This document shows positions 52,490 to 54,193 of a DNA stretch of 64,000 nucleotides, piece after piece. Numbering within the stretch: position 1 is the stretch's first letter; each line of letters opens with the position of its first letter. A program made the translations under genes and the position numbers. Source of the stretch: Sphingobium sp. (lineage in GTDB: Bacteria > Pseudomonadota > Alphaproteobacteria > Sphingomonadales > Sphingomonadaceae); the NCBI GenBank assembly GCA_020446425.1, contig JAGRES010000015.1:1-64000 (forward strand), written 5' to 3'. Below the pieces are notes generated by a model. The model saw nothing but the letters and a program-made list of their open reading frames with translations, was not told the DNA's origin and searched no databases.

Positions 52490-54193
52490 ATGACTGATGC
52501 ACCGCCCCTTCGCCTGTTCAACAGCCTGACGCGCCAGCTTGAAGATTTCGTGTCGGTTCACTCGGGCGAGGCACGTGTCTACACCTGCGGGCCAACGGTC
52601 TATAACTATCCGCATATCGGCAATATGCGTGCCTATGTGTTCGCCGATACGCTGGGCCGCGTGCTCAGCTTCAAGGGCTATAAACTCACCCATGTCATCA
52701 ACATCACCGATGTCGGCCACCTGACCGATGATGCCGACGCGGGCGAGGACAAGATGGAAAAGATGGCGGCGGAAAAGGCGCAATCCATCTGGGACATCGC
52801 GAGACATTATACCGACGCTTATTGGGCGGACGTGAAGGCGCTGAATATTCGGCAGCCTGCCCACTGGTCAATCGCTACTGACTATGTGCCGCAGATGATC
52901 GACTTCGCGAAGAGCATCGCGGATGAGCATTGCTATGAGCTGGAGAGCGGCCTCTATTTCGACACGTCGACGGTGGCCGATTATGGCCGTCTCGCGCGCG
53001 AAGACGACTTAATCGCAGAGACTATGAAAGTAAGCTCTCGGCTCAGGGCACTCCAAACCCTCGATGATGTCGACAAATTGAGGATTGAATTCCACTCGAT
53101 TGCTAAGGATTTCTTGGCAAATTTGCGGAGCTTCCACAGCCGGAAAGCGCTAAAAAAATATAGCGATCTAATTAAGATTTGGGAATGGGCCGACGCTCCC
53201 GCCAGCGTAAATCTGGCGGAGCATCTAATTGCAAGTGTTGACGCAACCCGAGAGCGGCTACGCGAAGGTCGTATCGACTCTGTCGACGGTAAGCGAAACG
53301 ACGAGGACTTCGCAATCTGGCGTAAGACGCCGCCGGGCGAGAAGCGCCAGATGGAATGGGACTCGCCATGGGGCAAAGGCGCGCCGGGCTGGCATCTCGA
53401 ATGCTCGGTAATGAGCCGCGAACTGCTCGGGCTGCCCTTCGATATCCACACCGGCGGCATCGACCATCGCGAGATCCACCACCCCAATGAGATTGCGCAG
53501 AACCAGGCAATTACTGGTTGCGGGTCGCTGGATTGCGCCGAGCATTCGGGCGCGCGGATATGGATGCACAATAACTTCCTGATTGACCGGTCGGGGAAGA
53601 TGTCGAAGTCGTCGGGCGAGTTTCTGCGCGTGCAGCTGCTCATCGACAAGGGCTTCCACCCGCTCGCCTATCGTATGATGTGTTTGCAGGCGCATTACCG
53701 CAGCGAGCTGGAATTTTCGTGGGACAATCTCGCCGCCGCACTGACGCGCCTCAAACGCATGGTGATGGCGGTCGCGCCGCTCAAGGATATTACTGCTGCG
53801 CCATCGGTAACGCATCAGAAACTGACGCCGCTGCTCGCAAAATTCGACGAGGCGCTGAGTGACGATCTCAACACCGCCGTTGCCCTCACCCTGTTCGACG
53901 AGGCCATCGCGATCAAGAAAGTGCCGGTCGAGGAAAAACGCGCTTTGGTTGAGGCGATGGATGCGGTGCTCGGTTTCGATTTGCTTGATCTGAAACGCGA
54001 AGACCTGCGTATCCGCCCGAAAGGCGCCGTCATCACCGCGCCCGAGATCGAAACCTCGCTCGACCTGCGCAAGGAAGCACGCGAAGCAAAGGACTTCGCC
54101 ACTTCCGATGCGATCCGCGACGGCCTTGCCGCCAAGGGCGTCGAAGTTATGGACGGCGACCCGCTCCGCTGGGAATGGAAGCTTACTCCATGA
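52490..54193 (+). CDS. cysS: Cysteinyl-tRNA synthetase with a ~90-residue insertion
   Basis: Charges tRNA-Cys. The 567-residue protein is about 100 longer than the 461-residue E. coli enzyme. Motifs are intact: HIGN at 42-45, KMSKS at 370-374, and zinc ligands C33, C305, H330 and E334. The E. coli spacing between the first two zinc ligands is 181; here it is 272. The extra part lies at about 171-258, between DYGRLAR and GRIDSVDGKRNDEDFAIW. It is helix-rich (FHSIAKDFLANLRSFHSRKA) and encoded by clearly AT-richer DNA. No intein splice motifs. The frame is open throughout, so the enzyme is probably functional. ATG at 52490. Confidence 0.93.
   Translation: MTDAPPLRLFNSLTRQLEDFVSVHSGEARVYTCGPTVYNYPHIGNMRAYVFADTLGRVLSFKGYKLTHVINITDVGHLTDDADAGEDKMEKMAAEKAQSIWDIARHYTDAYWADVKALNIRQPAHWSIATDYVPQMIDFAKSIADEHCYELESGLYFDTSTVADYGRLAREDDLIAETMKVSSRLRALQTLDDVDKLRIEFHSIAKDFLANLRSFHSRKALKKYSDLIKIWEWADAPASVNLAEHLIASVDATRERLREGRIDSVDGKRNDEDFAIWRKTPPGEKRQMEWDSPWGKGAPGWHLECSVMSRELLGLPFDIHTGGIDHREIHHPNEIAQNQAITGCGSLDCAEHSGARIWMHNNFLIDRSGKMSKSSGEFLRVQLLIDKGFHPLAYRMMCLQAHYRSELEFSWDNLAAALTRLKRMVMAVAPLKDITAAPSVTHQKLTPLLAKFDEALSDDLNTAVALTLFDEAIAIKKVPVEEKRALVEAMDAVLGFDLLDLKREDLRIRPKGAVITAPEIETSLDLRKEAREAKDFATSDAIRDGLAAKGVEVMDGDPLRWEWKLTP

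What the first reader, a model, noticed from the sequence alone, without database searches (positions are those of the whole stretch)
53000..53264. In-frame ~90-residue AT-rich insertion inside an otherwise intact cysteinyl-tRNA synthetase
All catalytic and zinc motifs of CysRS are present, but the distance between zinc ligands C33 and C305 is 272, against 181 in E. coli. The extra stretch at residues about 171-258 replaces the short link between DYGRLAR and the DFAIW strand. It is predicted helical, and its DNA uses codons such as TTA, CTA, AAA and ATT that are rare in the rest of the gene. This suggests a domain acquired by insertion into an essential gene without breaking the frame. It has no intein or group-intron splice features. 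It could tune tRNA-Cys binding, dimerise, or be a tolerated relic of a mobile sequence.
Basis: partly seen in the sequence, partly recalled or inferred. Interest (0 to 1): 0.75.

Follow-up and report, generated by a model that had tools for sequence, protein, structure and literature searches.

The report
Swappable helical insert in cysteinyl-tRNA synthetase
An essential enzyme that loads cysteine onto its tRNA carries an extra folded helical domain at a spot where scattered related bacteria carry similar or quite different inserts, which suggests that this part of the enzyme is being repeatedly remodelled, perhaps by something that attacks it.

Summary
cysS (52490-54193) is intact and carries an in-frame 91-codon segment (52997-53269) where relatives have a linker of about 9 residues (net +82). 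The insert has low GC3 (0.53 against 0.74 in the rest of the gene), and AlphaFold2 predicts a self-standing four-helix domain (pLDDT 92). The nearest relatives by the rest of the gene lack it. It is no one-off: 12 distinct carriers were found, the window included. Five share this domain, a sixth probably does, and six have other sequences of 49-112 residues at the same site. On a tree of the gene without the insert, 11 carriers need 11 changes (shuffled mean 10.7). In 12 of 12 the insert's GC3 is far below its host gene's. The six domain-A carriers share a glutamate 12 residues downstream (0 of 98 non-carriers). No homologue was found outside CysRS. The upstream half of cysS also looks mosaic. 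Best reading: this CysRS loop receives folded helical modules by horizontal exchange and soon loses or replaces them; the module most likely changes what binds there. That function is inferred, not shown.

The parts
52490..54193 (+). cysS, cysteinyl-tRNA synthetase, 567 aa (576 aa if read from 52463)
   Evidence: Open frame; Pfam PF01406 E 1.1e-74; NCBIfam TIGR00435 above its cut-off; only CysRS match in the genome at E <= 0.001
52997..53269 (+). inserted segment, 91 codons, in place of a linker of about 9 residues
   Evidence: Comparison of fetched loci, linker lengths, GC3 0.527 against 0.741 in the rest of the gene
53003..53059 (+). helix 1 of the insert
   Evidence: AlphaFold2 of the insert alone
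53069..53146 (+). helix 2 of the insert
   Evidence: AlphaFold2 of the insert alone
53153..53194 (+). helix 3 of the insert, with the best conserved stretch (KKYxDLIxIW in three carriers)
   Evidence: AlphaFold2 of the insert alone; alignments
53213..53266 (+). helix 4 of the insert
   Evidence: AlphaFold2 of the insert alone
53303..53305 (+). glutamate codon just before DFAIW that goes with domain-A inserts
   Evidence: 6 of 6 domain-A carriers (L034 counted), 0 of 98 non-carriers, 0 of 5 other carriers examined
52586..52588 (+). first conserved cysteine (CGPTVY motif); zinc role from general knowledge of CysRS
   Evidence: Sequence and alignment
53402..53404 (+). second conserved cysteine (GWHLEC motif); zinc role from general knowledge of CysRS
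   Evidence: Sequence and alignment
52586..52951 (+). upstream half of the catalytic region, the stretch that looks mosaic in the family (window has the common type)

Best explanation
The window's CysRS carries a small self-folding four-helix domain, plugged into a loop between the HIGH and KMSKS halves of the catalytic region (in sequence, between the two zinc cysteines). The domain came in horizontally. In the family this loop repeatedly receives such modules, homologous in some carriers and unrelated in others, probably by recombination between cysS alleles, and they are soon lost or replaced. The enzyme body stays intact and should still charge tRNA-Cys. The module most likely acts as an interchangeable interaction surface or shield, changing what can bind there (an antagonist, or a partner), and is not part of catalysis. 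Shown: the insert, its fold prediction, the scattered distribution, the low GC3 in every carrier, the linked glutamate. Inferred: horizontal exchange by recombination, rapid turnover, exposure of the loop, and the interaction-surface role.
For: Empty site in the nearest relatives: window against L003 is 91% (upstream half) and 84% (downstream half) identical, C-C spacing 194, no insert. 12 distinct carriers; 11 of them on a tree of 109 rows need 11 changes, shuffled mean 10.7, and at least 7 are forced by starred branches. L033's body is 96% identical to empty-site L089, in the same gene order. In 12 of 12 carriers insert GC3 is 0.38-0.58 against 0.68-0.86 in the host gene. The downstream glutamate goes with domain A in 6 of 6 carriers and in 0 of 98 non-carriers. 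The window's insert alone folds at pLDDT 92 and pTM 0.83. Among the window, N. album and N. sediminis inserts pN is 0.29-0.33 and pS 0.76-1.02. The upstream half of cysS also shows discordant trees. Of 56 complete CysRS of the other type in a sample of the order (my count), none is longer than the query by 30 residues or more across the site; the most is 16, in G1062.
Against: No functional data. No homologue of the domain outside CysRS was found, so the donor is unknown. Flank evidence for recombination is weak: synonymous identity to the nearest non-carrier is 0.35 and 0.49 in the first two 8-codon bins upstream, against 0.42 and 0.60 in controls, with no clear dip downstream. Synonymous sites are saturated or nearly so in insert and body, so insert age cannot be compared with body age. 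Overall GC, unlike GC3, is not lower in L122 (0.585 against 0.573) and hardly lower in L148 (0.605 against 0.615). The full-length model is weak in the body (mean pLDDT 70.8) and its coordinates were not read, so exposure of the loop and nearness to the tRNA are unmeasured. The ORF comparison of neighbouring genes showed nothing common to the carriers alone, but no family search was run on the neighbours.
Confidence: 0.5

Rival explanations
1. Neutral passengers: the loop merely tolerates AT-rich DNA captured in frame; each insert is transient and is purged, with no benefit.
For: Apparently unrelated sequences of various lengths (49-112 aa) and low GC3 in all 12 carriers, scattered single carriers, one insert low-complexity and Ala-rich (L033), no known family at cut-off.
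Against: The same domain is recognisable in five carriers of more than one genus, the window's copy folds confidently, and pN is far below pS among the three closest copies; the linked glutamate suggests adaptation or co-transfer.
Confidence: 0.25
2. A lasting accessory function, such as helping tRNA-Cys binding, dimerisation or docking of a partner protein, gained by horizontal transfer and useful only in some niches.
For: Fold prediction and a conserved stretch around KKYxDLIxIW. Extra domains on synthetases are a known route to new functions (general knowledge; the review PMC7373986 has a passage on appended domains).
Against: Inserts at the same site with no detectable relation (profile comparison of the two sets finds nothing) do not fit one conserved partner; very few carriers.
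Confidence: 0.2
3. An old feature of the family, inherited from a common ancestor and lost in nearly all lineages.
For: Domain-A homologues occur in more than one genus with diverged sequence.
Against: Would need very many losses (11 changes for 11 carriers); low GC3 persists in every host; 6 of 383 sampled family genomes with a match, the window included, were confirmed as carriers of any insert.
Confidence: 0.05

Closest known systems
Connective-peptide (CP1) editing domains of LeuRS, IleRS and ValRS
   Same: Extra domain between the HIGH and KMSKS halves of a class I synthetase (CP1 in PMC7373986, passages seen; the editing role is general knowledge)
   Different: Editing domains are ancient and catalytic (recalled); this is a small four-helix bundle with no solved structure matched at E <= 0.001 and a scattered distribution
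Lineage-specific domains added to synthetases (for example cyanobacterial CAAD, Plasmodium insertions)
   Same: Extra domains on a housekeeping synthetase (CAAD recalled; Plasmodium papers seen in the search listing)
   Different: Those are, as recalled, stable traits of whole lineages; here the same site holds apparently unrelated modules in scattered species
Rickettsia palindromic elements (in-frame mobile inserts in protein genes; recalled)
   Same: In-frame insert in an essential gene of an alphaproteobacterium
   Different: Those are short repeats in many copies per genome (recalled); here one copy in the genome and a folded 91-residue domain
Plasmid-borne CysRS that takes over from the chromosomal enzyme (pBT1, Salmonella D23580; PMC6785131, passages seen)
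   Same: CysRS altered through horizontally acquired DNA; the authors can only speculate why
   Different: A whole gene on a plasmid; here one loop of the chromosomal gene differs

Membership tests
Cysteinyl-tRNA synthetase (host protein) | CysRS catalytic domain, class I motifs and conserved cysteines intact | tested here: met
   PF01406 E 1.1e-74, TIGR00435 above cut-off, invariant motifs in 26 aligned proteins
Intein | Cys/Ser at the start, His-Asn at the end, about 130 residues or more (rule recalled) | tested here: not met
   Insert is 91 residues, begins with Arg and ends with Gly followed by Arg
Repeated in-frame element (Rickettsia palindromic element type) | Several copies in the same genome | tested here: not met
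   Insert profile finds one place in the genome at E <= 10
CP1 editing domain | Editing-domain fold | tested here: not met
   Predicted four-helix bundle; no editing domain among the listed structure matches, best E 1.3
CAAD-type membrane-anchoring domain | Transmembrane helices | not tested
   No membrane prediction was run; Pfam gave no match at cut-off
Known protein domain family | Match of the insert to a curated profile | tested here: not met
   Window insert: no match at cut-off in Pfam or NCBIfam. Other carriers: none at cut-off in Pfam (L122 not scanned). Seven inserts of alignment A3: nothing better than E 0.012 in PHROGs or 0.027 in PADLOC

The most novel reading that the evidence does not exclude
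CysRS of sphingomonads is the battlefield of an arms race: an unknown antagonist (a phage protein, a toxin delivered by rivals, or an inhibitor) binds the connecting region of the enzyme, and cells escape by swapping in a new helical shield at this loop and by exchanging the neighbouring upstream half of the gene between species.
Probability: 0.25. Interest if true: 0.85.

Novelty: new variant of a known kind. Interest (0 to 1): 0.6.

Why it matters
Essential, slowly evolving enzymes are expected to be stable. A loop in one that repeatedly takes up folded, foreign-looking modules would show how new domains enter essential proteins without breaking them. If an antagonist drives it, it would point to an unrecognised natural attack on CysRS and a way of escaping it. 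It is directly testable with small proteins and a standard charging assay.

Tried and rejected
Sequencing error or frameshift pair: rejected; the frame is open and named isolates (N. album, N. sediminis) carry homologous inserts.

Insert age from synonymous divergence: pS is 0.70-1.02 in inserts and 0.43-0.67 in the body, but both are at or near saturation and the body's codon bias lowers its ceiling, so no age was drawn from it.

Profile search for the domain in 385 genomes of the class: 7 matches at E <= 0.01, one being the window itself; the other six are at E 0.002-0.008, near what chance gives (about 4 expected). Viral contigs: none. tRNA-Cys comparison: the pattern that I guessed hit only 3 of 20 genomes, so it was dropped.

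Relation of the 49-residue inserts to domain A: none by profile comparison. L034 and L121 were put in the domain-A alignment, but their kinship is not secure (14% and 19% identity; hydropathy match reached by 213 and 275 of 5000 shuffles). L034 has domain A's length and glutamate; L121 has neither. The four 49-residue inserts are also not securely related to one another (16-22% identity).

An apparent clean gap between two upstream-half types (0.82 and above against 0.71 and below) partly reflects which loci I held: the family listing has some 25 genomes at 76-83%. So 'mosaic' is kept and 'dimorphic' dropped.

Control neighbours: 1 insert of 30 residues or more in 126 copies of three neighbouring genes; too few for a rate test, and the 80 loci were picked partly by a motif of the insert.

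Two-row genomes not opened: G199, G352, G589, G622. G283 and G368 have a second row from another contig or gene. G490 and G570 show a normal linker in the readable part. In G585, G605 and G611 one row runs across the site without a break. G436 ends at a contig edge. Genomes with a single row were not checked further.

Rows dropped: L128, L114, L116 and L122 before the tree; L122 also before the glutamate count (it reads RNAADFAIW).

Full report
OBSERVATION. The gene is cysS, read on the + strand to 54193. The first-stage numbering fits a start at 52490; the open frame runs from 52463. Pfam and NCBIfam identify CysRS, with two matched stretches on either side of a gap. It is the only CysRS match in the 2.73-Mb genome at E <= 0.001. 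The two conserved cysteines lie 272 residues apart; fetched loci without a long insert have 189-197 where the script could measure it. The differing segment is 52997-53269: 91 codons where relatives mostly have 9. GC is 0.495 and GC3 0.527, against 0.594 and 0.741 in the rest of the gene; 1.06% of 4915 overlapping windows of 91 codons in long open frames of the 64-kb window are as low in GC3.

FOLD. AlphaFold2 of the insert alone, with seven aligned inserts, gives four helices at mean pLDDT 92.0 and pTM 0.83. In the full-length model the same four helices appear, with block pLDDT 81-95 over residues 181-260 and 67 over 261-270; the body is partly weak (mean 70.8), so the model does not settle where the domain sits. 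No solved or viral structure matches at E <= 0.001; the best are E 1.3 and 0.67. No curated family matches the window's insert at cut-off, nor those of ten other carriers in Pfam. For seven inserts PHROGs and PADLOC give nothing better than E 0.012 and 0.027, and a profile search of PDB sequences nothing better than E 0.055.

WHO HAS IT. The closest relatives by the body of the gene lack it: L003 (91% upstream half, 84% downstream half) and L002 (87% and 86%) have short linkers. That scan used a motif of the insert as one of its patterns, so it is biased towards homologues. A less biased survey used a CysRS segment without the insert: a carrier then shows two separate matches. In 397 genomes of the family, 383 matched, and six were confirmed as carriers: the window itself (G000), G172, G220, G295, G323 and G383. 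By my reading of the E-values about 70 of the 383 carry another, more distant CysRS type. In 195 Novosphingobium genomes, 184 matched and six were confirmed: G383 again, G539, G555, G595, G618, G624. G383 is the contig of L035, and G539, G555, G595 and G618 print the same insert stretch as L031, L032, L036 and L034. The number of distinct carriers is thus 12, the window included. A few two-row genomes were not opened (listed under tried and rejected), so these are lower bounds. As a control, 56 of 80 sampled genomes of the order have a full-length match to the other CysRS type (my count) and none is 30 or more residues longer than the query there, the most being 16 (G1062); G095 is frameshifted and G097 cut short there. 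The rates are too low for this difference to be significant.

KINDS OF INSERT. The window's domain (A) is clear in N. album (56% identity), N. sediminis (55%), G220 (30%; pairwise E 4e-12) and Novosphingobium 28-62-57 (18%, with the same motif around KYxDxIxxW), and probable in L034. Four inserts of exactly 49 residues (L036, L119, L122, L148), one of 84 (L121) and one Ala-rich of 112 (L033) have no recognisable relation to it.

COMPOSITION. In 12 of 12 carriers GC3 of the insert (0.38-0.58) is far below that of the host gene (0.68-0.86) (L122's gene contains a masked stretch, which lowers its body value). Overall GC is lower in most, but not in L122 (0.585 against 0.573) and hardly in L148 (0.605 against 0.615). 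This fits recent foreign DNA. It would also fit a rare segment that escapes whatever keeps GC3 high in the core genome.

SCATTER. On a tree of 109 CysRS bodies with the insert region left out, 11 carriers (L122 was left out) need 11 changes; 500 label shuffles average 10.7, and strongly supported branches alone force 7. L033's body is 96% identical to that of L089, which has an empty site in the same gene order. The trait is thus not clustered: either it is gained often and soon lost, or it has been lost many times.

HOW IT MOVES. The six domain-A carriers (L034 included) have Glu just before DFAIW; 0 of 98 non-carriers and 0 of 5 other carriers examined do. This points to co-transfer of a stretch that reaches about 12 codons past the insert, or to a structural contact; the six share the domain, so they are not independent. 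Synonymous identity to the nearest non-carrier is lower in the 16 codons upstream (0.35 and 0.49 per 8-codon bin, against 0.42 and 0.60 in controls), which is suggestive only; downstream shows no clear dip. The upstream half of cysS also looks mosaic: a type 82% or more identical to G295's is one clade on the tree of that half (24 of 131 rows, support 99) but needs 11 changes on the tree of the downstream half (3 forced by strong branches). That is more than one, yet well under the shuffled mean of 22.4, so the type is partly clustered there too. The carriers G172 and G295 have it; the window does not. Recombination between cysS alleles of different lineages is thus likely in this gene.

FUNCTION. 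Nothing was measured. The body keeps the motifs, so charging activity is expected. Among the window, N. album and N. sediminis inserts pN is 0.29-0.33 and pS 0.76-1.02: the domain seems to have been kept as a protein, not drifting as a relic, though pS is saturated. Apparently unrelated modules at one site argue against one conserved partner and for a loose demand such as a steric change of a surface. Antagonist escape is the boldest form of this; support is circumstantial. CysRS genes do travel: 621 plasmid records have a match to the window's CysRS at E <= 1e-10, 502 of them labelled Klebsiella, some of the listed records being chromosome-sized; and Salmonella pBT1 carries a CysRS that is used in place of the chromosomal one, for which the authors only speculate about a reason (PMC6785131, passages). 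The insert itself was found in no record of the plasmid or phage collections at E <= 1, nor in viral contigs.

LITERATURE. Searches for CysRS with 'hypervariable' and 'insertion', with 'Novosphingobium', with 'connective peptide' (20 of 46 papers listed), with 'horizontal gene transfer' and 'Alphaproteobacteria', with tRNA and structure terms (8 of 51 listed), and for synthetases with added or in-frame insertions or phage (8 of 285 listed) listed no paper whose title or start of abstract describes this. The library holds open-licence papers only. Passages of three papers were seen (PMC6785131, PMC3532385, PMC7373986); none describes such inserts in CysRS.

VERDICT. A real and unusual feature: a new variant of a known kind (extra domains on synthetases), made notable by the hot spot. 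The evolutionary description is fairly secure; the function is open.

Noticed in passing
window 52586-52951 and equivalents in L046, L056, L060, L074, L087, L119, L121 and most of L175-L193: The upstream half of cysS looks mosaic in the family: one type is a single clade on its own tree but spread over the tree of the downstream half, and several genera hold more than one type.
   Followed up: partly
G539 (N. sediminis) C36:22358-22825 (L162); G368 C8:26798-27292 (L128): Two genomes carry a second CysRS of the distant type beside the family's usual one.
   Followed up: partly
plasmid collection: 621 plasmid records hold a CysRS match, 502 of them Klebsiella; plasmid-borne cysS seems common. 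Some of the listed records are chromosome-sized.
   Followed up: no
window 52490-54193: This CysRS scores best against 3sp1 (a Borrelia enzyme, recalled) among solved structures and against NCBIfam PRK14536, whereas other families of the order have a type only about 36-44% identical in its downstream half: the gene seems to have been replaced in this family.
   Followed up: no
L036:3517-3663: The 49-residue insert of L036 gives a below-cut-off Pfam hit to Arm DNA-binding domain PF12167 (E 0.0009, 19.6 bits against a cut-off of 22), a domain of phage-type integrases as I recall; possibly chance.
   Followed up: no
G585 C1:2100667-2101219 and G611 C1:3088517-3089072: In two Novosphingobium assemblies the cysS match is split between two overlapping frames downstream of the insert site, which may be a frameshift or an assembly error.
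   Followed up: no
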